A DNA stretch of 64,000 nucleotides, taken from assembly GCF_017301615.1 (NCBI RefSeq), contig NZ_CP059066.1:372001-436000 (forward strand), written 5' to 3'. The notes under the pieces were generated by a model. That model ran no database searches, was not told where the DNA came from, and saw only the letters and a list, made by a program, of their open reading frames with translations. Source of the DNA: Koleobacter methoxysyntrophicus (GTDB lineage: Bacteria; Bacillota; Thermosediminibacteria; Koleobacterales; Koleobacteraceae). Positions 5,284 through 20,737 of the stretch are shown here, in pieces (positions within the stretch are counted from its first letter, which is position 1; each line of letters opens with the position of its first letter). The position numbers were made by a program, and so were the translations under genes.

Positions 5284-6612
5284 ATGATGAGACAAAAAAA
5301 TATCTTTTACTCCTTATGGATCAGATTTTGCTTCAGCGCACAGATGGCATGGCACGGGATACTGGCCAACCCCCTTCGATCGGGTCTTACGATACTCGGC
5401 GTCGCTATAGGTGTTGCTTCTGTCGTCAGCCTTATGGGTATCGGTGAAGGGGCCCGTCAGGCCGTTGTAGAACAGTTTAAGAGCCTGGGTTCGAACGTGA
5501 TCGTCATAAAGGCACACGACGCCTCGGTCGAATTCAAACCCGAAGACGCAGAAGAACTGGTAGAAAGGGTCCAGGGTTTAGATATGGCTACCCCAGTTAT
5601 CAATACTGAAGCCGTTATGAGGTGGCGGCGGTCGAGAGGGAATGTAAATATTCTGGGTGTAAATAACCAATATCCTGAAATCAGAGACCACCCCTTACTG
5701 GCTGGGCATTTTTTCACAAACTGGCATGTCCTGCAGCGTTCCCCTGTCGCCGTTCTGGGTTATAATATAGCTTCGGGTCTAATGGCAGGACGAAGCCCTG
5801 TGGGCCAGACCATTACCCTGAACGGCAGAACCTACAGGGTTATCGGTGTCCTGTCTGCCAAAGGCCGCGGAAATGCCGAGAATATCGATGACATGGTTGT
5901 TATTCCTTATACTTCGGCAATGCAGATAGCCGAGAAAAAAACCGTCGTGGAAATCTGGGGTAAAGCTCCATCACCTGATGAAGCTGACCTGGCTGTAGTA
6001 CAGCTGGGCCGAATATTTAAACGCAGGCTGGGACTGGACCAAAGTGCTCCAACTCCGGTCCCCGGCGGCGGTGAAGGCGGAAGCCCTGAATCAGGAGCAC
6101 CTTACAAACCAGTCGAACCCACCAAAGAAATGAAAAGCTCAAAACCTGCTATTCCCGGAAGCGGAAAAGACCTTATAACCATAACAAGCCTGAATCAACT
6201 GGTTGAAGAAGCGGATAAGGCAAACAGGGTAATGACCTTACTTCTAGGGGGTATAGCAGCCGTTTCCCTTCTGGTCGGAGGCCTGGGAATAATGAACATC
6301 ATGCTGGTGGCAGTAACGGAGCGGACTGAAGAAATAGGTATTAGGAGGGCTCTGGGTGCAAAACAGGGCGACCTGCTGACACAGTTCCTGCTGGAGGCCT
6401 TATACCTGAGCGCTATCGGTGCCATTGCCGGGACGGCAGGAGGCCTTTGGGGCCTGAACCTTTTCGGCCGCTACGGTTTCGAAACGGCTGTAAGCCTCCA
6501 GGCAATAAAGATTGCAACTATTGTTGCCCTTACCTCAGGGCTTTTGTTCGGAATATACCCGGCCATCTCGGCATCTTCAGTAATGCCCGTCAAGGCCCTC
6601 AGGCGCCAGTGA
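5284..6612 (+). CDS. MacB/FtsX-family ABC transporter permease
   Basis: The 442-residue permease has the MacB layout: one membrane helix near residues 35-60, an extracellular MacB core domain to about residue 310, then three C-terminal FtsX helices. The motif ERTEEIGIRRALGA before the third helix is a hallmark of the family. A Pro/Gly-rich linker near residues 257-300 is longer and less conserved than its surroundings. The ATG at 5284 follows AGGGGGTAATTCT, 11 nt after the adaptor stop. A terminator follows, so this is the last gene of the operon. Substrate unknown. Confidence 0.92.
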   Translation: MMRQKNIFYSLWIRFCFSAQMAWHGILANPLRSGLTILGVAIGVASVVSLMGIGEGARQAVVEQFKSLGSNVIVIKAHDASVEFKPEDAEELVERVQGLDMATPVINTEAVMRWRRSRGNVNILGVNNQYPEIRDHPLLAGHFFTNWHVLQRSPVAVLGYNIASGLMAGRSPVGQTITLNGRTYRVIGVLSAKGRGNAENIDDMVVIPYTSAMQIAEKKTVVEIWGKAPSPDEADLAVVQLGRIFKRRLGLDQSAPTPVPGGGEGGSPESGAPYKPVEPTKEMKSSKPAIPGSGKDLITITSLNQLVEEADKANRVMTLLLGGIAAVSLLVGGLGIMNIMLVAVTERTEEIGIRRALGAKQGDLLTQFLLEALYLSAIGAIAGTAGGLWGLNLFGRYGFETAVSLQAIKIATIVALTSGLLFGIYPAISASSVMPVKALRRQ

Positions 6613-6658
6613 AAAAAGCCGCCGAATATGGCGGGCTGCTGTATCCCGGATTAATCAG

Positions 6659-6691
6659 AGTGCCCGGAGAAACCCGGGCACTGTCTTTTTT
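6659..6691 (+). terminator. Terminator of the MacAB-like operon
   Basis: A perfect 9-bp stem, AGTGCCCGG (6659-6667) with CCGGGCACT (6674-6682), is followed by GTCTTTTTT on the + strand. Confidence 0.88.
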
Positions 6692-6749
6692 CGTCTTATA
6701 TTTCGTGCTTTAAATAGATATTTGGTTTTGTTGTTTAAGTTACACAGTA

Positions 6750-8159
6750 TTATTCAGCTAACTTGGATTCAATATAAGCCATAGCAGGCTCCAACCTTGC
6801 TATGTCAAGGTGATTATAGTCAAATGATTTAATATCTTTCAGTTTGGCTCCCCGTTTGGTTACCCCCGTTACATAAGTAGCACTTGCCACAAAGAGGAGG
6901 CCATCGCTGGCATCAGCTTTTTCACCTATGGGATAACCCCACCATGTATAATCCCAAACCTGATTTGTCCCATATAAAACATACAGATCCACGCCGGGGT
7001 CTAAGCCCTTTCCGTTCATTTTGGCTATGAAATTACTTGTTCCAGTATTTCCATTTGGATTCGCAATTACATTGTCTATACCTTCTGATGTAATGTAAAG
7101 GCTCTGGCCTCCGTAATAGAGTTTATACATAGTTTCATTCAAATCCCCTGCGGTCCAGCTTTCGGCATTGAAATCTATAGGGTGCTCCGGGTCTTCCACC
7201 CAGTTATGCAATAGTTGTGTTTGGCCCTGAAAGAAGTTATCTTTATACGTATGACTCATATCCCAGCGCTTGTAATACCGGTACGCATAATATATATAAG
7301 CTTCCCAGAAAGCAACAGGACTGTTCAAGTTATCCTCAATCACAGTCAGATTTGCCGTATAGTACCTGAACATGGTATCTATACCTTTGAAAGGCGACGC
7401 TACGGCTATATATTTCCTGACATCACCCCTGTAGTCAGTCATCCAGGTAGTATCGGTCCATTCCTGGTTCAGAGAACTCATATAGGAAATGGCTGCAAGA
7501 TTTCCTTTGCTGTGGGCTACAATATCTACCTTACTTGCCCCGGTCTTTGATTTAATAACTTCAATAGCGTCAGCCAGCAGCTGGGCTTGAATCAGGTTAT
7601 TCCCATGGGTGTGGGCAAAGGAAATGGCAAACACGGCATATCCCCGTTCGGATAAATACTGCATTAACCCCGGATTTTCTATAGTGGAAGGTGTTTGATG
7701 ATCCCACGGATGGGCCCACGCCCGGTTCATGTCGTCCCTTGCCCCGTGAACCAGCAATACAGGATAAGGTTTTGTAGCATTTTGCCATCCCGGTCCATAT
7801 CCCAGAAGAAAATACTTGTTGCTTGCTAGATGACCATAACTGCCAAAATTATAATCTTCATAGCTTGAACTCTGCCCATCTTCAACATATATATCCCCCG
7901 GGAACCAGTTTCTTACCTTGTTATTCCTGGGCAAGCTGAACTTTACGATAGGTTCTTGACCATTGATCATTTCGCTCTTGCTACTTGCCCAGAGTTCTAC
8001 TTTTTCCCACGGGAAAGGGTCGGTTGCCGTAGCAATAAGGGTCGGTGACCCAGATTCAGCTTTGGTTGAGTTCAACGGGATGAAAGGGTTCCCTGCCGTC
8101 ACTGCCAAGAGAGTAGCAGCTACCAAACTAATAAACCACCACTTCTTTACCCTTTTCAT
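6750..8159 (-). CDS. Secreted alpha/beta-hydrolase (lipase/esterase)
   Basis: This 469-residue protein starts with a typical signal peptide: basic residues, a hydrophobic core at 9-24, and a cleavage region before residue 40. It therefore acts outside the cell. The nucleophile elbow VDIVAHSKGN has Ala in place of the first Gly of GxSxG, as in Bacillus LipA-type lipases. The oxyanion-hole region VLLVHGARDD precedes it, and the late DYNHLDI segment offers the catalytic histidine. It lies 34 nt after the CoA-transferase gene and is probably the last gene of the sigma-54 operon starting at 12644. An extracellular esterase feeding short-chain acids to the co-encoded symporter and CoA-transferase is my inference. 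The exact substrate is unknown. Confidence 0.82.
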   Translation of the reverse strand: MKRVKKWWFISLVAATLLAVTAGNPFIPLNSTKAESGSPTLIATATDPFPWEKVELWASSKSEMINGQEPIVKFSLPRNNKVRNWFPGDIYVEDGQSSSYEDYNFGSYGHLASNKYFLLGYGPGWQNATKPYPVLLVHGARDDMNRAWAHPWDHQTPSTIENPGLMQYLSERGYAVFAISFAHTHGNNLIQAQLLADAIEVIKSKTGASKVDIVAHSKGNLAAISYMSSLNQEWTDTTWMTDYRGDVRKYIAVASPFKGIDTMFRYYTANLTVIEDNLNSPVAFWEAYIYYAYRYYKRWDMSHTYKDNFFQGQTQLLHNWVEDPEHPIDFNAESWTAGDLNETMYKLYYGGQSLYITSEGIDNVIANPNGNTGTSNFIAKMNGKGLDPGVDLYVLYGTNQVWDYTWWGYPIGEKADASDGLLFVASATYVTGVTKRGAKLKDIKSFDYNHLDIARLEPAMAYIESKLAE

Positions 8160-8193
8160 TTAATCACTTCCTTTAATAATATTGAAAAACCGA

Positions 8194-9516
8194 TTACCAG
8201 ATCATCAATTTCCTGGCTTCCCATTCTAGTTTTTCCCTAAATTCAGGATGAGCTATTTTAATAAGCCTTTTCACCCTTTCTCTGATAGGGGTCCCCTTGA
8301 GTTCCGCAACTCCGTACTCTGTAACCACATAATCTACATCGTTTCTTGACAGCGAGACAGCTGCACCGGGGGTAAGGGTAGTTACTATTTTAGATATGGT
8401 CTTTTTGCCGTTTCCATCTTCGCTCTTTACTTCTGCTGTTGAATAGAGGGCTATTATCGATTTTCCGCCTTCCGAGTACTGGGCTCCTTTGGCTGTATCC
8501 GCCTGGCCGCCCGTACCGCTGAATTGCCTGTGCCCTATAGATTCTGAACAGCATTGGCCCGTCAAATCCACTTCAAGGGTTGTGTTTATTGAAACCATTT
8601 TGTAATTCTTTCCTATTACATACGGGTTATTGGTCCAACTCCCCTTCATTAAGGCAACGGCAGGGTTATTATCGATAAAATCGTAGAGTTTTCGGCTTCC
8701 TAGAGCAAAAGTAGCCACCATTTTTCCGGGCATCAGCGTCTTCTTCCTCCCCGTAATAACTCCCGCATAAAAAAGGTCTACCATGCCGTCGGTGAGCATT
8801 TCAGTGTGAACCCCTAGATCCCTTTTATGCATGAGCTCTACGGTAACAGCATTGGGTATCCTTCCGATTCCCAGCTGAATGGTTGAACCATCGTCAATTA
8901 AATCTGTAATATGCTTCCCTATCTGTCTGTCTTTATCCGTCGGCTCCAGATAGGGGAGCTCTGGAACGGGATTACTGCTTTCGACTACATAATCAATATC
9001 CGTTATATGTACGATGGTATCGCCAAAGGTCCTGGGCATATTTTTATTCACTTCTATTATTGTAATTCCTGCATTATCTATCATTTCCCTTTCATAAGTA
9101 ACACTCAAAGATAATGAAAGGTAGCCGTTTCTGTCCATAGGTGCCGCCGTCCCTATGAAAACGTCCGGTTTTCTGTATGAAAGCCTTTTTGCTGCTGCCA
9201 AATGAAGATGGTTGGGTATATATGATATGTGGCCGTATTTGTGGACCTTTCTCATCCCTGTGCTGTAAAACCATCCTTCCATTTTGAAGTTTTCTTTATA
9301 AGCGGGATTTATAAAATATTCGTAGTCCCCCATAGGAAGGCATGTTACAACAGTAATATCCTTTACCCTTGGAGCAATAGTATGGAGTTTTTCCAGTATA
9401 GACGATGGCTCTGCACCGGCAAGGGCGGAAACTATTTCATCCCCTGAATTTATTTTGTTCAAAGCCTCTTCCACAGATATTAATTTATCCCCGTATATTT
9501 TTTCAAAATCCAACAT
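8194..9516 (-). CDS. Acetyl-CoA hydrolase/transferase family CoA-transferase (4-hydroxybutyrate CoA-transferase-like)
   Basis: At 440 residues this matches the Cat1/Cat2/AbfT group, which moves CoA between acetyl-CoA or succinyl-CoA and a carboxylic acid. The glycine-rich QLGIGRIPNAV motif near residue 220, the HTEMLTDG segment that holds the expected catalytic Glu, and the late GHRQFSGTGGQAD motif are all present. It acts in the cytoplasm. It lies 21 nt after the FabH-like gene and before the lipase. In this operon it most likely activates an acid imported by the Na+ symporter. Which acid (acetate, butyrate, hydroxybutyrate or another) cannot be told from sequence. Confidence 0.9.
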   Translation of the reverse strand: MLDFEKIYGDKLISVEEALNKINSGDEIVSALAGAEPSSILEKLHTIAPRVKDITVVTCLPMGDYEYFINPAYKENFKMEGWFYSTGMRKVHKYGHISYIPNHLHLAAAKRLSYRKPDVFIGTAAPMDRNGYLSLSLSVTYEREMIDNAGITIIEVNKNMPRTFGDTIVHITDIDYVVESSNPVPELPYLEPTDKDRQIGKHITDLIDDGSTIQLGIGRIPNAVTVELMHKRDLGVHTEMLTDGMVDLFYAGVITGRKKTLMPGKMVATFALGSRKLYDFIDNNPAVALMKGSWTNNPYVIGKNYKMVSINTTLEVDLTGQCCSESIGHRQFSGTGGQADTAKGAQYSEGGKSIIALYSTAEVKSEDGNGKKTISKIVTTLTPGAAVSLSRNDVDYVVTEYGVAELKGTPIRERVKRLIKIAHPEFREKLEWEARKLMIW

Positions 9517-13174: not shown

Positions 13175-14611
13175 TTATGAAGGTGAAACTAGATGTTTTT
13201 GAATACTTATCCCGTACCTGTTCATTTTTTCATATAAACTGGATCTGCTTATTCCCAAAAGTTTTGAAGCTGTAAATTTATTTCCTTTTGTATATTCCAG
13301 GGCTTTTATTATTGCCTCTTTTTCCACCTCCTCTATTATATCCTTCATCGGTTTTATAGGGCCGTTATATGTCCTCTTATCCTTTAATTTTATATAATCG
13401 GGGAGGTCATCACAATCTATCATACAGCTGTTAGACAGAATTATGGCCCTTTCTAATACATTTTCCAGCTGTCTGACATTGCCGGGCCATTTGTAACTTT
13501 TAATAATATCTAGAGCATTTTTTGATATTTTAGTTACATATTTACCAACCCGTTCACTTATTTTCTTTATTAGAACTTCACACAGGTGATCTATATCTTC
13601 TGTCCTCTCCCTTAAAGGGGGTATTTTTATAGTTAAGACATTCAGTCTGTAATATAAATCTTCCCTGAACTGACCCTTTTCAACCAATTCCTCCAGGTTC
13701 TTATTAGTAGCTGTAATCAACCTTACATCTATATTTTTCGTCTCTGTTGAACCTACAGGTTCAATCTCTTTTTCCTGGAGTACTCTAAGGAGCTTAGCCT
13801 GCATTTTTTCAGGCATATCACCAATCTCATCAAGGAATATTGTTCCCTTATTGGCAAGCAGAAATTTGCCGGCCTTCCCCCCTTTTTTGGCTCCGGTAAA
13901 GGCACCTTCCTCATAACCGAATAGTTCTGATTCAAGAAGTTCGGAGGGTATGGCCGCACAGTTAACCTTAATGAAAGGGTAGAAACGCCTTCCTCCCGCA
14001 TTGTGTATAGCGTGGGCAAATAGTTCCTTTCCCGTCCCGCTTTCCCCCAGTAGAAGGACATTTGAATCGGTTGCCGCGGCTTTCTGGGCCAGTCCCTTCG
14101 CCTCTTTCATCTTTGTCGAGTTACCAATGATACAGTTAAAGGAATATTTGGCTCCCTTTATCCTCTGCAATTCCTTTCTATAATAGTCTAAAGTGGTTTC
14201 AAGGAGCCTGTTTTTTTCAACGATTTCTCTAAACTGCTCTACATCTTCGAATAAAACCATCCCGAAACCGTAAAGGATATCCCCGTGTTCGTCAAGGACT
14301 GGTATCCTGTGGACGATAGCCGTATGCCCGTTTTCAAAGGTATGCTTCCAGGCTATTTCTGCCTGTTTCTTCTGAAATACATAGGGCCATCTGCTGTTTT
14401 TATCTATGTCCAGGACCTTTTCACCTATTATCCGGTGCTTTGGAAAACCGAGATAATCAGCAAAGGCTTTGTTTATCATTTTAACCCTCGTATCTTTATC
14501 TACAACAATTATGCAGATGGGAATCGGATCAAAAATTCTTTCCATCATTGAAATAAAATAATTATTAAAGAGAAGGTTTTCACCCCGGTTATCCTCTAAT
14601 GCTTCCTGCAC
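13175..14611 (-). CDS. PAS-domain sigma-54-dependent transcriptional activator
   Basis: The 478-residue activator has a PAS domain at about residues 20-125, a sigma-54 AAA+ domain at about 160-395 and a Fis-type helix-turn-helix at about 435-470. Walker A reads GESGTGKE near 190, the sigma-54 contact loop GAFTGA is at about 236, and DEIGDMP follows. Such proteins hydrolyse ATP to open sigma-54 promoters after sensing a ligand through PAS. Its neighbour operon carries a clear -24/-12 element at 12763, so it most likely controls symporter and lipase expression. The start is GTG at 14611 after GGAGGGGG. Confidence 0.93.
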   Translation of the reverse strand: MQEALEDNRGENLLFNNYFISMMERIFDPIPICIIVVDKDTRVKMINKAFADYLGFPKHRIIGEKVLDIDKNSRWPYVFQKKQAEIAWKHTFENGHTAIVHRIPVLDEHGDILYGFGMVLFEDVEQFREIVEKNRLLETTLDYYRKELQRIKGAKYSFNCIIGNSTKMKEAKGLAQKAAATDSNVLLLGESGTGKELFAHAIHNAGGRRFYPFIKVNCAAIPSELLESELFGYEEGAFTGAKKGGKAGKFLLANKGTIFLDEIGDMPEKMQAKLLRVLQEKEIEPVGSTETKNIDVRLITATNKNLEELVEKGQFREDLYYRLNVLTIKIPPLRERTEDIDHLCEVLIKKISERVGKYVTKISKNALDIIKSYKWPGNVRQLENVLERAIILSNSCMIDCDDLPDYIKLKDKRTYNGPIKPMKDIIEEVEKEAIIKALEYTKGNKFTASKLLGISRSSLYEKMNRYGISIQKHLVSPS

Positions 14612-14719
14612 ATCAATCCCCCTCCAAGGTTTTCAATTTCCAGGATAAGCTTGTCGGAACTTATTAATATATTCTTTTAAAACGATGTAAATCCTTCAAT
14701 TTTATTACTTTTTTTAAAC

Positions 14720-15538
14720 CTACCTTATCCCGGATGTCAGCATAAGCATGACCCTGAAAACATTAAATGTCTCTAAATAATCTTTCCCTTTATAAATAAC
14801 CGTGCGGGGGTCTTTCTTGACGGCACCGGGAATAAGCAGGCACATATCGGCCATATTTGAAACGGTAAAGGAGATTTCCAGTTCTACAGGGTCCTTTTCT
14901 ATGGTAGGTTTGATAGTTTTTATGCTCTCCATAGCTTTAGACACACCGGCTGTTAAACGTTCTTTTACCATCTCAAATGGAAAAAGCTTTGCCGAAGTGC
15001 GGCCCACAGCTTCTTTAACTACTACGCCAACGGGGTTTTCCAGTTCACTGTAAGCACATGAAACGGCATTCTGATCTCCCGATATAAAAACCACGGGAAC
15101 CCCGAAATATCCTGCCAGCCTGCCGTTGATACCGGCTTCACCCACAGATTTACCGTTGATTTTTACATCGAGGACCCGTAATGTGTATGTATGGTCTATA
15201 ACAGCCTCCGAAAAACCCGCCCTGGCATGATACCCGACAAAAAATACTGCATCGAAGCTGCTGTCAATCCCCTGCATCATGCTCAGTGGTTTCGGGTTTC
15301 CGCTTATAAGCACAGCCCGCCGGTCTAAATCTTCCCTAAGAATATTGTCCATGCCGCCGTGAGAATCATTAACAACGATCTCATCTGCCCCAAACCTGAA
15401 TGCGGCTTCTATTACGCTATTAATCTCTTCTGTCATAAGCTTTCTTGCCCTTTCATATTCCCGTTCATGCGGGTCCGTTTGAGCCATGGAAAAAATCCCT
15501 GAAATTCCTTCCATATCGGCTGAAATAAATATTTTCAA
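14720..15538 (-). CDS. dppA: D-aminopeptidase DppA (M55 family)
   Basis: DppA is a zinc peptidase that releases N-terminal D-amino acids such as D-Ala from peptides. I place the start at the TTG at 15538, preceded by GGAGG, and not at an upstream ATG. With this start the metal ligands fall at Asp8, Glu10, His60 and His104, which matches the numbering known for the Bacillus enzyme; EAG supplies the next Glu. The length becomes 272 residues, normal for the family. It is downstream of ddh and the dapF::nhaC chimera and probably shares their sigma-54 promoter. D-Ala peptides and diaminopimelate both occur in peptidoglycan, so cell-wall peptide use is a reasonable inference. Confidence 0.92.
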   Translation of the reverse strand: MKIFISADMEGISGIFSMAQTDPHEREYERARKLMTEEINSVIEAAFRFGADEIVVNDSHGGMDNILREDLDRRAVLISGNPKPLSMMQGIDSSFDAVFFVGYHARAGFSEAVIDHTYTLRVLDVKINGKSVGEAGINGRLAGYFGVPVVFISGDQNAVSCAYSELENPVGVVVKEAVGRTSAKLFPFEMVKERLTAGVSKAMESIKTIKPTIEKDPVELEISFTVSNMADMCLLIPGAVKKDPRTVIYKGKDYLETFNVFRVMLMLTSGIR

Positions 15539-15727
15539 TTCTAAAGCACCTCCAGTATGAGATTTTATTTTCAAAAGGTTTAGGGCTCCCTCGTATTTAC
15601 CTGAGAGCCCTATGATTCATCTTGATTCATATAATATATATATATAAGATTTTTACATATTATAAATAGTTCTTCTTTATTTATTTAGATTAACTCCAGC
15701 AATTTGTATACTTACATCATAATACCA

Positions 15728-16660
15728 TTAAGCTTTTACATCGCCTTTTGCCGAATAATCCGAAGCTCCCGGTTCTAAGATGGGTTTAGACAGTATCCTG
15801 AATAATCCAAGGGAAATTACTGCAGCGATTATCAGGTTAATTATAATCGGCAGTCCTAAAGCCACACCTAAATACCCTACTAGTGCCCCAACCGCAGCTA
15901 AAATAGCATACGGAATCTGGGTATTCACGTGGTCAATATGGTCAGCACCGCTGAACATAGATGACATGATAGTGGTATCGGATATGGGGCTGCAGTGGTC
16001 ACCAAATACTGCACCGGCAAACACTGCCCCGATAGTTGCAAACATGTAGACCATCGGGTCAAGCCCTGCAGAGGTTGAGGTGCTGTAAAGCAGGGGAACA
16101 ACATTGGTTCCTTCAGGGAACTCCTCTTTATTAAACCTGATTTCTTTCCCTAAGCCCCTCAATTCATCATCTGTAATCCCATCTAAGTCTTTTATAAATA
16201 TCACACAATGCGGAACTCCTGCTATTATATAGTTGCATATCAATTCGCCTTTACATGTGTTTACTTTCCTATCTTCGTTAAATCCGTTTATTTTAATATC
16301 TCCCATTTTAATTTTAACAAGCACTTCCCCGACTTCTGCGTATATGTTCCCGGCCAGGGTTTCAAACACCATTTTACGGGGTGCTATATTTTCGACAAAT
16401 GCATATCTGGCGATACACCTGGCGCCGTTACCGCACATTTCCCCCTCCGAGCCGTCTCTGTTAAAAAGTCTCATTTTAAAATCAGCGTGCAGGGAATTTT
16501 CGAGCACTAAAACCCCATCGGCTCCCATGGATACCCTTCTTTTGCAAACCCTTCGGGAAAAAATCGGCAGTATATCTTCTTCCAGGTTTCCCAAACGATT
16601 ATCTATTATTATAAAGTCATTACCGCAGCCGGACATTTTAGTAAAAGCCGTTTTATCCAT
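15728..16660 (-). CDS. Chimera: DapF N-terminal domain fused in frame to NhaC C-terminal membrane region
   Basis: Residues 1-187 are diaminopimelate epimerase. They include the KMSGCGNDF start, the first catalytic Cys76 in EMCGNGARC, and the FPEGTNV motif. Directly after FPEGTNV the protein changes to NhaC sequence: VPLLYSTSTSAGLDPM, then GDHCSPISDTTIMSSM, then DHIDHVNTQIPYA. The junction is near base 16099. The second DapF half, with its catalytic Cys in ACGTG, is missing, as is the NhaC N-terminal two thirds. The frame is open throughout, so either a deletion removed the 3' half of dapF and the 5' part of nhaC, or the assembly is misjoined. DapF activity should be lost. I start at ATG 16660 after GGGGTGAAA. 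Confidence 0.88.
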   Translation of the reverse strand: MDKTAFTKMSGCGNDFIIIDNRLGNLEEDILPIFSRRVCKRRVSMGADGVLVLENSLHADFKMRLFNRDGSEGEMCGNGARCIARYAFVENIAPRKMVFETLAGNIYAEVGEVLVKIKMGDIKINGFNEDRKVNTCKGELICNYIIAGVPHCVIFIKDLDGITDDELRGLGKEIRFNKEEFPEGTNVVPLLYSTSTSAGLDPMVYMFATIGAVFAGAVFGDHCSPISDTTIMSSMFSGADHIDHVNTQIPYAILAAVGALVGYLGVALGLPIIINLIIAAVISLGLFRILSKPILEPGASDYSAKGDVKA

Positions 16661-16676
16661 ATGTTTCACCCCGGAG

Positions 16677-17582
16677 TTATACAAGTCTGTTTATGATTTC
16701 CCACCTGTCACCTGGGAGATAGTCAATTAATGGGATTTCCAGCGGGACATAACTTCCGGGCTTCTGTTTCATGGCTGCCCTTGCGGCACACACCATCACC
16801 TGAGCAGTTACTGCAGGGTTCGTTATCTTAAGCCTGTATTCCATTTGCTGGTTGTGTGTTTTCCCTGCTACCCCTTTTCGTTCCATTAAAACCCCGTGGC
16901 CGTTGTCCATGAGCCGGTCTACATCCTCGACAGGTATTACATGGGTTTCATCCTTTTTGAAATAGGGATTTTCCTTAATTGCCTTTTCAACAGCGTCAAA
17001 TCGGGCATCCCCCGCCAGTTCTACATAAACAAGCCTTTTGTGAAACCCGAGCCCCTTTGGAACCGTAAGGGACAGAGCCTTCTTAACACCCGGGGTTTTC
17101 TTGGCCTCCACCGTATGGCCCATGCTCATCCCCGGGCCGAAATTCGTATATGTGATCCCCTTAGGAGCCATTATTTCAAATATGGCTCTTACCATGGAAT
17201 CTGTCCCCGGGTCCCAGCCGGCTCCTGAAATTGATACAGAACCCTTTTCCTTTGCTATACTATCCAATCTCTTTACCATATTTACCAGATTTTCGCCGTG
17301 AATATCGTAGCTGTCAACGGTATTTATGCCCTTTTGAAGTATCTTAGCTGCCTCTTCCGGGACAAGGACCGAGGGTATACATAACAGTGCTACATCTACT
17401 TTCGAGAGTTTGTCGATGGAATCCACAACGGGATAATCGGGCAATTCCCTCTGCAATTTGTCGAGGTATTTTGGTTTAACGACTATTCCGGCAACCTCCA
17501 TGTCTCCTGATTCCTTTAACGCATCAAAGGCACAGACCCCGATATTGCCATAACCTATAACTGCTGCCTTTATCCTGTCCAT
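16677..17582 (-). CDS. ddh: meso-Diaminopimelate dehydrogenase
   Basis: This NADP-dependent enzyme interconverts meso-diaminopimelate and tetrahydrodipicolinate plus ammonia. Visible features are the Rossmann motif VIGYGNIG at residues 8-15, DSYDIHGEN, SGAGWDPGTDSM and FGPGMSMGH, all matching known Ddh. The 301-residue length is also close to the family. The ATG at 17582 follows GGAGG. A longer frame exists upstream but would run into the sigma-54 promoter at 17628, so I reject it. It is first in the operon with the DapF chimera and DppA. A sigma-54 promoter is unusual for a biosynthetic ddh and points to catabolic use. Confidence 0.9.
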   Translation of the reverse strand: MDRIKAAVIGYGNIGVCAFDALKESGDMEVAGIVVKPKYLDKLQRELPDYPVVDSIDKLSKVDVALLCIPSVLVPEEAAKILQKGINTVDSYDIHGENLVNMVKRLDSIAKEKGSVSISGAGWDPGTDSMVRAIFEIMAPKGITYTNFGPGMSMGHTVEAKKTPGVKKALSLTVPKGLGFHKRLVYVELAGDARFDAVEKAIKENPYFKKDETHVIPVEDVDRLMDNGHGVLMERKGVAGKTHNQQMEYRLKITNPAVTAQVMVCAARAAMKQKPGSYVPLEIPLIDYLPGDRWEIINRLV

Positions 17583-17627
17583 TACAACAACCTCCATTAT
17601 CTCTAATATTTCTTCTGGCAGTTCATC

Positions 17628-17644
17628 TTGCAATATTCATGCCG
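17628..17644 (-). promoter_or_regulatory. Sigma-54 promoter (-24/-12) of the ddh operon
   Basis: The minus strand reads CGGCATGAATATTGCAA, with GG-N10-GC spacing. It is 46 nt upstream of the ddh start codon, leaving a leader of about 30 nt. The activator gene at 17905-19782 is directly upstream. Confidence 0.8.
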
Positions 17645-17730
17645 TACCTTTTTAAGCCTCCGTTGAATACGGGTTTAATCGGCAGTTTAAGGGATTTGAT
17701 TTTTCAATGACAATAATTGGCACAGACCGC

Positions 17731-17836
17731 AAGTTCGCTCATGCGAACTTCCGTGTTTCGGCTGCTGCATTTTTTTGAATTTACAGCATTTTTTTCTGAG
17801 ATTCGCTGAGGTTCGCTTTTTTGAACTCTTAGTTCA
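17731..17836. promoter_or_regulatory. Two dyad sites upstream of ddh, candidate activator-binding sites
   Basis: AAGTTCGC-TCAT-GCGAACTT (17731-17750) is a perfect 8-bp dyad. TGAACT-CTT-AGTTCA (17822-17836) is a perfect 6-bp dyad that shares the core GAAC/GTTC. More GAACT and GTTCGC half sites lie between and beside them. The dyads are about 90 and 180 bp upstream of the -24 element, the normal range for enhancer sites of sigma-54 activators. Confidence 0.55.
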
Positions 17837-17904
17837 TTTTTCTGAACTCTCAACCTGTAATCATTTCCGGTTATATTTCCCGAATTGAAACATTTCGTTC
17901 TCTT

Positions 17905-19782
17905 TTATTCTATATTATGTTCCTTCATTTTTTTGTAGAAGCTTGTTTTCCCCATTCCCAATAGATTCATCGCCTTTTTTCGGCTCCCTCCTGCGATATC
18001 AAGGGCTTTCTTGATTGCCTTTTTTTCTGTTTGTTTTAATATTTCATCAATGGGAGCAAACCCCTTTAATTCTACCAATTCTTCGGTACTCCCTTCAGAG
18101 GCATGCCCATGATATAGGTATTCCGGGAGATGGACAGAAAGAATGGTATCACCGGCAGCAACATTTACCGCCCTCTCCAGGACATTTTCCAGTTCCCTTA
18201 CATTTCCTTTCCATCGGTGGTCAAGCAATATCTTCATGGCCTGGTCGGAAATCCGTTTTGCCTTTTTCCCCGCTCTCTCGCATATCCTCGGGATAAAATA
18301 TTCTACTAAGGGGAAAATATCCTCAGGCCTTTCTCTTAAGGGAGGTATCAGGATAGAAATTACATTGAGCCTGTAATACAGGTCTTCGCGGAATTTGCCT
18401 TCCAAAACCGCTTTTTCTAGATTCTTATTGGTTGCCGCGATAATCCTAACATCCACATTTATCGGGTCAAGCCCTCCAACCCTTGTAAATGATTTTCTCT
18501 GGATAACATGCAGGAGCTTAGCCTGGAGGGTGATGGAAAGTTCCCCTATTTCATCAAGAAATATGGTCCCGCCGTCCGCAAGTTCAAATTTCCCCTTTTT
18601 ACCTGTCGCCAGAGCCCCGGTAAACGCCCCTTTTTCATAACCGAAGAGCTCACTCTCTAAGAGGTTTTCTGGAATAGATGCACAATTTATATAGATGAAG
18701 GGGCCTTCCTTTCTTGGACTTGCCTTATGAATAGCCTCAGCAAAAACCCCTTTTCCGGTCCCGCTTTCACCTAAAAGCAGTACAGTTGAATTAGATTCGG
18801 CCGCCCTCTTTGCCAGATGTATAACACCCCTTATCTTTTCACTGCAGCCTATAATATCCATGAAAGCCTTTTCCTGAACTTCCGTTTGTTTCAACTGTTT
18901 TTCGAGGCTTTCCAGCCTTTTTATGGTCAAATCCCTTTCTTCCAGAATCACCTTCAACTCGCTTACATCCCGGACTTTTAGAACGGCTCCTGTCCGCCTC
19001 CCTTTTGTTTCAATAGGCTGTACCGAACACCTGACCGGAATGCCGTTAATCTTCCCTTCCATATCTAATAACCCTGCTGTCTTGCCTTCAGCTGTATCGA
19101 CCAGTGCCTTTATCATAGGTGATTCAGGGTGTATCTCATTTATATGCCTCCCTATTATAAGGGGTGGGGCTGCATAAGGTCCTTTTCCCGTATATTCCGA
19201 CCCCATTAAAATCTTTTTGGCATCTTCCCTGCGTGCCGTATAACCCAGCGCCTGGTAAAACTTGATTTCATGAGTTACCGGATCTAATAATAACAAGTGA
19301 CCTGCGGAGTGGTGGTAAACAAAATCGAATTTTTCCTCTCCGACTTTTAACCTCAAGCGCCTAATTAACGGGTCAGCCTCAGCTGTTAGCTTCAGGCCTG
19401 CCATTGTCGTCGAAACCTGCAGGGGCCTAACAGCCTTGCCCGCAGCCTCTTTTTTAAATATGGCAGTTCCCGGCTGTGCTCCTTTTATTCCAATCGCTAC
19501 AACCATATCCCCTGTCTTTATGTCTTCGGGCTCTATTCCTATTACTTTCAAATCCTCTGGGGTCAAACCTCCGTCATCACTGCCCAGGGAATTATCGGCG
19601 AAAAGTACAATATCTCCTAATACCGCCTTCCCTTTTTTATGGCCGGGGCCCGATGCGGGCATTATCCCGAATATATCCATAGCCCTTTTATTGTATACCC
19701 TGATTGATCCCATGCTGTCGATAGCTATAATCCCGTCATCGACCATATCAATAACGGCTTTAAAGAAACTTCCGCTATTCAT
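17905..19782 (-). CDS. Sigma-54-dependent activator with N-terminal PAS and extra sensory region
   Basis: This 625-residue protein starts with a PAS domain (residues about 5-45, then [17 protein letters not shown]). A region of about 110 residues that I do not recognise comes next, followed by a second PAS-like region at about 150-275. The AAA+ domain has Walker A GESGTGKG near 339 and GAFTGA near 385. The Fis-type helix-turn-helix is at the end ([18 protein letters not shown]). It is adjacent to the ddh operon, which has a sigma-54 promoter and upstream dyads, so that operon is its probable target. The ligand is unknown; diaminopimelate or a D-amino acid peptide would fit. Confidence 0.92.
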
Positions 19783-19951
19783 TAAAATGCCTCCCTATAA
19801 AAGAAGCTGTAACTTGCATACATTATTAATTTTCTATTTAACCCCCTTTATGTCCTGCTGATTTTTGAAATATAAACCTGGTATATTATCCAATCACATG
19901 CAAATACTAAAGTAAAATAATACCCTTTAGTCAAAATCGGAGGTGAATCAG

Positions 19952-20191
19952 GTGATTTCCTGCGAAGTATCGCTGTATCCCATGGACACCCAGGATTCGG
20001 ACAGAATAATAAACTCCTCTATAGAATCCCTGAAAGGTCAGGGAATAGCATGTGACATCGGATCAATAAGCACCTATTTTTCCGGAGACCCGGATAAAGT
20101 ATGGCATGGATTGAGAACCCTTTATGAATCGGCTCAAAAGGAAGGGAAGGAAGTAGCGATGGTAGTTACTATTGCCAACAGCAGGAAGTAA
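19952..20191 (+). CDS. YkoF/MTH1187-like thiamine-binding-fold protein
   Basis: This 79-residue protein resembles the small YKOF-like or MTH1187-like domain that binds thiamine or related ligands as an oligomer. It has the alternating pattern ISCEVSLYPMDTQDSDRIINS, split here as ISCEVSLYPMD and SDRIINS, and a later GSISTYFSGD segment. A GTG at 19943 overlaps the GGAGG at 19939-19943, so the next GTG at 19952, 8 nt downstream, is the better start. It stands alone between a divergent activator gene and a convergent EamA gene. Its role is unknown. Confidence 0.75.
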   Translation: MISCEVSLYPMDTQDSDRIINSSIESLKGQGIACDIGSISTYFSGDPDKVWHGLRTLYESAQKEGKEVAMVVTIANSRK

Positions 20192-20210
20192 GCAAAATCG
20201 TAATAAAAAT

Positions 20211-20236
20211 AAGTGGAGAATCGGAATTCTCCACTT
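20211..20236. terminator. Bidirectional terminator between the YkoF-like gene and the EamA gene
   Basis: A perfect 11-bp stem, AAGTGGAGAAT (20211-20221) with ATTCTCCACTT (20226-20236), has a T run on both sides. It overlaps the stop codon of the convergent EamA gene. Confidence 0.85.
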
Positions 20237-20657
20237 ATCGTTTTATAAGGGCGATACCTATTACAACCAGAACCGCACCGAGGAGTTTGTGCCATGAAAA
20301 CCGCTCTCCAAGCAGTATAACAGCCAGAAGCACAGTTACCATCGGGGCTGCCGAAGTTATGGGGGTAATGGTGGATGCAGTCCCCAATTTTAAGGCGTAG
20401 AAATATGCTAGGTGCCCTAACAGGGAAGCAAATATCCCCTCGGCGGCAATAAGCCCCCATGTCTTCGGCTCAACGGTTAGAAGGTTAGGGGTATTTCCGC
20501 TGAATAAAAGCCATGCTAACAAAATCACCGTGATTATTATGCTCCTGATAACCATAGCGATAGCAGGGTCAGCATTTGTGAGGCCGGCCTTACCAAATAA
20601 CGGGGCAATTCCCCAGCATAACATGGTAATAACGGCAAAGATAAAAGGATTCACCAC
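20235..20657 (-). CDS. EamA-domain (DMT superfamily) transporter, single-domain form
   Basis: The 140-residue protein is a single EamA domain with four to five membrane helices. It has FAVITMLCWGIAPLFGKAGL at the start, ASLLGHLAYFYALKLG in the middle, and a final helix. Most DMT exporters have two such domains, so this one probably works as a dimer. The start is GTG at 20657 after GGAGGGC. It is 81 nt downstream of iadA and may share that operon, suggesting export or import of an amino acid or metabolite. Substrate unknown. Confidence 0.85.
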   Translation of the reverse strand: MVNPFIFAVITMLCWGIAPLFGKAGLTNADPAIAMVIRSIIITVILLAWLLFSGNTPNLLTVEPKTWGLIAAEGIFASLLGHLAYFYALKLGTASTITPITSAAPMVTVLLAVILLGERFSWHKLLGAVLVVIGIALIKR

Positions 20658-20737
20658 ATCGCCCTCCCGCTTCTTTAAAATCCCTCTTTAATTATTTTAT
20701 AATAGTTCACACTGATTTTCATCCCATGTTTACATGT

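What the first reader, a model, noticed from the sequence alone, without database searches (positions are those of the whole stretch)
15728..16660. In-frame dapF::nhaC chimera
The first 187 residues are DapF with one catalytic Cys. Right after FPEGTNV the sequence becomes the last third of an NhaC antiporter. Both halves are well conserved, the frame is open, and the second DapF catalytic Cys is missing. The simplest history is a deletion joining dapF to a downstream nhaC inside the ddh-dapF-nhaC-dppA operon. The cell may rely on Ddh for meso-DAP, which would make DapF dispensable.
Basis: partly seen in the sequence, partly recalled or inferred. Interest (0 to 1): 0.7.

Follow-up and report, generated by a model that had tools for sequence, protein, structure and literature searches.

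The report
Deletion fused two broken genes
A recent deletion of about 1.7 kb joined the front of one metabolic gene to the end of a neighbouring transporter gene, which very probably wrecked both; it is ordinary gene loss, though it hits an amino-acid gene cluster that relatives are also losing piece by piece.

Summary
In detail: on the minus strand, 16660-15728 is one open frame of 310 codons whose residues 1-187 are DapF and 188-310 the last fifth of an NhaC antiporter. The deletion reading is strongly supported. In two genomes of the same order, and one further genome of the phylum, dapF and nhaC are separate, intact, adjacent genes in this order; about 1.67 kb is missing here, nothing like the missing nhaC part lies elsewhere in the single-contig genome, and the fusion was found in no other genome searched. 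The cut falls inside the second DapF domain and removes its catalytic Cys; NhaC keeps 122 of about 562 residues. Neither half shows decay, so the event is probably young. The broken copy was the paralogue in a sigma54-regulated ddh-dapF-transporter module. Relatives lose parts of the same module: G012 lost nearly all of this dapF, G024 has an internally deleted dapF, G003 a truncated ddh and a broken regulator. Most likely a non-functional by-product of gene loss; read-level proof was not available.

The parts
15728..16660 (-). dapF::nhaC chimeric ORF, 310 aa
16100..16660 (-). DapF part, residues 1-187 (domain 1 without its last strand, first half of domain 2)
15728..16099 (-). NhaC part, residues 188-310, matching residues 441-562 of the G002 NhaC
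16094..16106 (-). deletion junction; at most about 2-4 nt shared by the two parents (TGT/TGTT), parental sequences of this lineage unknown
16677..17582 (-). ddh, diaminopimelate dehydrogenase, 301 aa, full length (ATG at 17582; the longest ORF starts at 17633)
   Evidence: TIGR01921 283 bits, cut-off 180.6; best PDB match 3wb9
17629..17644 (-). sigma54-type promoter candidate, 11 of 12 consensus positions, upstream of ddh
17905..19782 (-). sigma54-dependent regulator (nearest model PrdR, below its cut-off)
14720..15574 (-). dppA-like D-aminopeptidase (M55); membership of the same transcript not shown

Best explanation
A deletion of about 1.67 kb removed the last third of dapF, the short gap and the first four fifths of nhaC, and happened to leave the frame open. 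Shown: the chimera, the separate parental genes in relatives, absence of the missing nhaC part elsewhere in the genome, an intact second dapF. Inferred: the product has neither epimerase nor antiporter activity, because one of two catalytic Cys and half of domain 2 are gone and only the tail of NhaC remains. The event is probably recent, since neither half has decayed. It could be tolerated because this dapF was the paralogue in a sigma54-controlled ddh-dapF-transporter module (proposed role: taking up and interconverting or deaminating DAP or a similar D-amino acid), while DAP for the cell wall comes from the dapL-dapF pair elsewhere.
For: Separate adjacent genes: G002 (L117) dapF 6017-6841 and nhaC 6920-8608 behind ddh and a sigma54 regulator; G003 (L118); G103 (L148). 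Lost stretch 1671 nt against G002, 1670 against G003 (my arithmetic). Own genome: the G002 NhaC finds its residues 441-559 here at 72%; the other strong matches are full-length paralogues at 36-42%. Second DapF over the cut-off at 333 bits, next to DapL, inside a 15-row clade of DapFs (support 100/99) from which the chimera is excluded. Only G000 spans the junction in 61 relatives and in 398 phylum genomes at E<=1e-28 (the two sets overlap). No decay: 28 of 28 positions conserved in at least 95% of 116 DapF sequences are kept; relative-rate tests give p 0.08-1.00 for DapF (10 tests) and 0.79-1.00 for NhaC (4 tests). AlphaFold2: intact G002 DapF mean pLDDT 89, its domain 2 blocks at 82-96; chimera 64.6 with residues 141-187 at 56-67 and 191-252 mostly under 50. 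Same module eroded elsewhere.
Against: No reads were available. In 7 of the 10 DapF rate tests the chimera had more unique changes than the reference, though none was significant. Absence of decay is also what a retained function would give. The frame stayed open, which happens by luck in one of three deletions. The Pfam and NCBIfam DapF scores still pass the cut-offs.
Confidence: 0.85

Rival explanations
1. Assembly artefact: the organism has separate dapF and nhaC, and 1.67 kb was lost in assembly or in a minority of the culture.
For: No read data; relatives have separate genes.
Against: The genome is one contig, 100% complete by the tool's estimate. The 401 bp across the junction are unique apart from a 76% match of about 105 bp to another nhaC. 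No long direct repeat spans the junction, only 2-4 nt shared with the inferred parents, so a repeat collapse is hard to see.
Confidence: 0.08
2. Selected fusion protein: a membrane-anchored DapF domain 1 that binds a ligand or a partner.
For: Open frame, 28 of 28 conserved DapF positions kept, no significant acceleration.
Against: Found in no other genome searched. The cut is in the middle of domain 2 (about residue 198 of the 285-residue chain 9mro, domain 2 being 124-268) and also removes the last strand of domain 1; the model is poor around and after the junction.
Confidence: 0.05
3. Ddh has taken over meso-DAP synthesis, which freed DapF.
For: A full-length Ddh lies directly upstream.
Against: A second intact DapF beside DapL is present. 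The Ddh of the window departs at 21 of 132 positions that are invariant in 8 relatives, against 0-9 for each of the others in the same leave-one-out count.
Confidence: 0.04

Closest known systems
Diaminopimelate epimerase DapF (TIGR00652, PF01678)
   Same: Residues 1-187 align over the first 188 profile positions; first catalytic Cys and 28 of 28 highly conserved positions kept
   Different: Second half of domain 2, the second catalytic Cys and the last strand of domain 1 are gone
NhaC-type antiporter family (PF03553)
   Same: Last 122 residues, 71% identical to the tail of the G002 NhaC
   Different: First 440 residues missing; equivalog TIGR00931 far below cut-off (32.6 of 370 bits), and the intact relatives did not match it at E<=1e-20 either
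Ordinary bacterial deletion chimeras (pseudogenes by deletion; recalled category)
   Same: Neighbouring genes joined, 2-4 nt of shared sequence at the join, related function present elsewhere
   Different: Frame happens to be open across the junction

Membership tests
DapF (functional epimerase) | Both catalytic Cys, one in each pseudosymmetric domain | tested here: not met
   Cys 76 present, CGTGS motif of relatives absent; two-Cys, two-domain description seen in passages of PMC12039745
DapF (functional epimerase) | Complete two-domain fold | tested here: not met
   Profile match ends at 188 of 270; model confidence falls in the cut domain compared with the intact relative (shallow alignments of 12 and 9 rows)
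DapF (sequence relationship) | Score over the curated cut-off | tested here: met
   TIGR00652 150.3 bits, cut-off 114.65
NhaC antiporter | Full-length membrane domain | tested here: not met
   PF03553 matched only at 241-299 of 303; 122 of 562 residues present
Deletion chimera | Both parents adjacent, same strand and same order in relatives, missing nhaC part absent from the genome | tested here: met
Deletion chimera | Junction present in reads and culture | not testable with these tools
   no reads held
Diaminopimelate dehydrogenase (neighbour) | TIGR01921 over cut-off; nearest solved structure a DAP dehydrogenase | tested here: met
   283.3 bits, cut-off 180.6; 3wb9, E 5e-109. Enzyme activity not tested

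The most novel reading that the evidence does not exclude
The module that is being lost is an undescribed sigma54-controlled system in which a second DapF, a Ddh and a transporter (NhaC type in some genomes, dicarboxylate/amino-acid symporter type in others) take up DAP or a similar diamino acid, epimerise it and deaminate it for nitrogen or carbon; it comes and goes quickly in this class, and the chimera is a snapshot of one loss.
Probability: 0.35. Interest if true: 0.5.

Novelty: new member of a known kind. Interest (0 to 1): 0.25.

Why it matters
As a protein it matters little: it warns that annotation by the N-terminal half would call this ORF a diaminopimelate epimerase (it passes the NCBIfam DapF cut-off). 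The surroundings matter more: a second dapF that travels with ddh, a transporter and a sigma54 regulator suggests a DAP or D-amino-acid utilisation module, and its repeated erosion by internal deletions in one class gives a natural set of knock-outs with which to test its role.

Tried and rejected
Rfam on window 14500-20700 gave nothing at E<=0.1. A sigma54 pattern over the whole window at up to 2 mismatches was no commoner than chance (54 found, 54.4 expected); only its position upstream of ddh or dapF in several genomes speaks for it: 11 or 12 of 12 in 5 of 8 upstream stretches tested, none at that level in G009, in G003 or before the window's dppA. Literature: 7 searches listed no paper on this module or on a dapF-nhaC fusion by title and abstract start; the library is open-access only.

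My scripts asked whether one ORF matched both halves and found none, but their filter excluded any single match that spans the junction, so I do not use that result; absence of other fusions rests (80 loci kept of 523 confirmed; matched residues end at 234 at most).

The rate test for Ddh suggests faster change or a different ancestry of the window's Ddh; I could not separate these. Using G103 as outgroup in the DapF test is doubtful, as it groups with G002/G003 in the tree.

Full report
What is there. The finding's coordinates hold one minus-strand ORF, ATG 16660 to stop 15728, 310 aa. Residues 1-187 are DapF and 188-310 are the end of an NhaC-family protein. Upstream on the same strand lie ddh (16677-17582) and a sigma54-dependent regulator (17905-19782); downstream, about 150 nt away, a DppA-like D-aminopeptidase. 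The window is 372001-436000 of a 3,102,782-bp single-contig genome.

History. In G002, of the same order, the cluster reads regulator - ddh - dapF (274 aa) - nhaC (562 aa); in G003, also same order, dapF - nhaC; in G103, same phylum, dapF - nhaC - regulator, with dppA on the other strand beside it. Against G002 the chimera leaves DapF after its residue 184 and enters NhaC at its residue 441, so 1671 nt are missing; against G003 it is 1670 nt (my arithmetic). The DNA at the join reads dapF-like up to ACCAATGT and nhaC-like from (T)GTTGTTCCCCTG; the overlap is 2-4 nt, and the exact parents in this lineage are unknown. The missing NhaC part is nowhere in the genome at comparable identity, and the missing DapF part is matched only by the other, 43% identical DapF. 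Acetomicrobium (L009) also has an nhaC (73% to the tail) and such a dapF near each other, in a different arrangement.

Is it unique? In 61 genomes of nearest kin, 55 had some match, and only the own genome spanned the junction. In 398 genomes of the phylum at E<=1e-28, 33 had a match, and again only the own genome spanned it. The two sets overlap. Only one genome of the genus is held, so the age within the species cannot be read off directly.

Function. The cut is inside DapF's second domain. The chimera aligns to residues 4-198 of the 285-residue chain 9mro; passages of PMC12039745 give, for Anabaena DapF, domain 1 as residues 1-123 plus 269-280, domain 2 as 124-268, and Cys75 and Cys224 as the residues bound by inhibitors (I saw passages, not the whole text; that 9mro belongs to the same protein follows from the entries 9mrp listed with it and cited there). 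So domain 2 is halved, one catalytic Cys is lost, and domain 1 loses its last strand. With shallow alignments the intact G002 DapF is modelled at mean pLDDT 89 (9 rows) and the chimera at 64.6 (12 rows), the fall beginning in domain 2. I take epimerase and antiporter activity to be lost (inference).

Age. All 28 DapF positions conserved in at least 95% of 116 sequences (some are copies of one gene in two loci) are kept. Ten relative-rate tests on the DapF part gave p 0.08-1.00, the chimera having more unique changes in 7, fewer in 2 and equal in 1; four on the NhaC part gave p 0.79-1.00. There are no stops or frameshifts. This fits a young deletion, or a retained function, which I think much less likely.

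Why it could be lost. The genome has a full-length DapF (281 aa, TIGR00652 333 bits) at about 2255.9 kb, directly followed by an LL-DAP aminotransferase that passes its equivalog cut-off. In a tree of 41 DapF N-terminal parts that copy sits in a clade of 15 rows with support 100/99, while the chimera lies outside it; the chimera's own exact place is unresolved.

The module elsewhere. Of 26 genomes of the class, by my reading of the scores 7 have a full-length module-type dapF (G002, G003, G009, G015, G016, G019, G023), and 2 a truncated one (G000, G024). In G016 and G019 the transporter between ddh and dapF is of the dicarboxylate/amino-acid symporter kind instead of NhaC (the G016 protein was matched to such models, below their cut-offs; the G019 one is 79% identical to it). 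Erosion is repeated: G012, about 96-98% identical to G009 across the locus, lacks nearly all of the dapF that G009 has there; the G024 dapF is an 81-aa ORF made of about the first 74 and last 7 residues, and its ddh keeps residues 1-34 and 209-287 in different frames; G003 keeps only residues 207-302 of ddh and four fragments of the regulator, upstream of intact dapF and nhaC; G013 has, besides a full-length ddh in the region shown, a second one reduced to residues 169-301. Some of these are fragmented draft assemblies, so single cases may be assembly faults; G012 and G013 are single-contig genomes.

Regulation. A site matching 11 of 12 positions of the sigma54 consensus (recalled consensus) lies 47-62 nt before the ddh ATG; sites of 11-12 of 12 occur before ddh in G002, G016 and G019 and before dapF in G103, not in G009 or G003 nor before the window's dppA. 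Window-wide such matches are at chance level.

Verdict. A real, ordinary deletion chimera, most likely a dead by-product of gene loss, in a module whose own role is unproved and more interesting than the fusion.

Noticed in passing
L118 4910-6010 (G003): The sigma54 regulator survives in four fragments and ddh only as residues 207-302, upstream of intact dapF and nhaC.
   Followed up: partly
L154 4704-5340 (G024): dapF with an internal in-frame deletion (about first 74 plus last 7 residues) next to a ddh with an internal deletion and frame change.
   Followed up: partly
L119 5413-6736 against L158 5742-6251: Two genomes of one genus (G009, G012), about 96-98% identical here, differ by loss of nearly the whole dapF between a MatE-like gene and gcvT.
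   Followed up: partly
window 16677-17582 (-): This Ddh departs at 21 of 132 positions invariant in 8 relatives, the others at 0-9; faster change or different ancestry.
   Followed up: partly
G001 (same family): Has a Ddh over the cut-off but no DapF match at E<=0.001, in a 94% complete assembly.
   Followed up: no
window 15583-15612: GC-rich hairpin between the chimera and dppA, without a clear U tract; no Rfam family.
   Followed up: no
window 11215, 12764, 17629, 22656, 23534, 45093: The six best sigma54-type matches (0-1 mismatch) of the window all lie on the minus strand.
   Followed up: no
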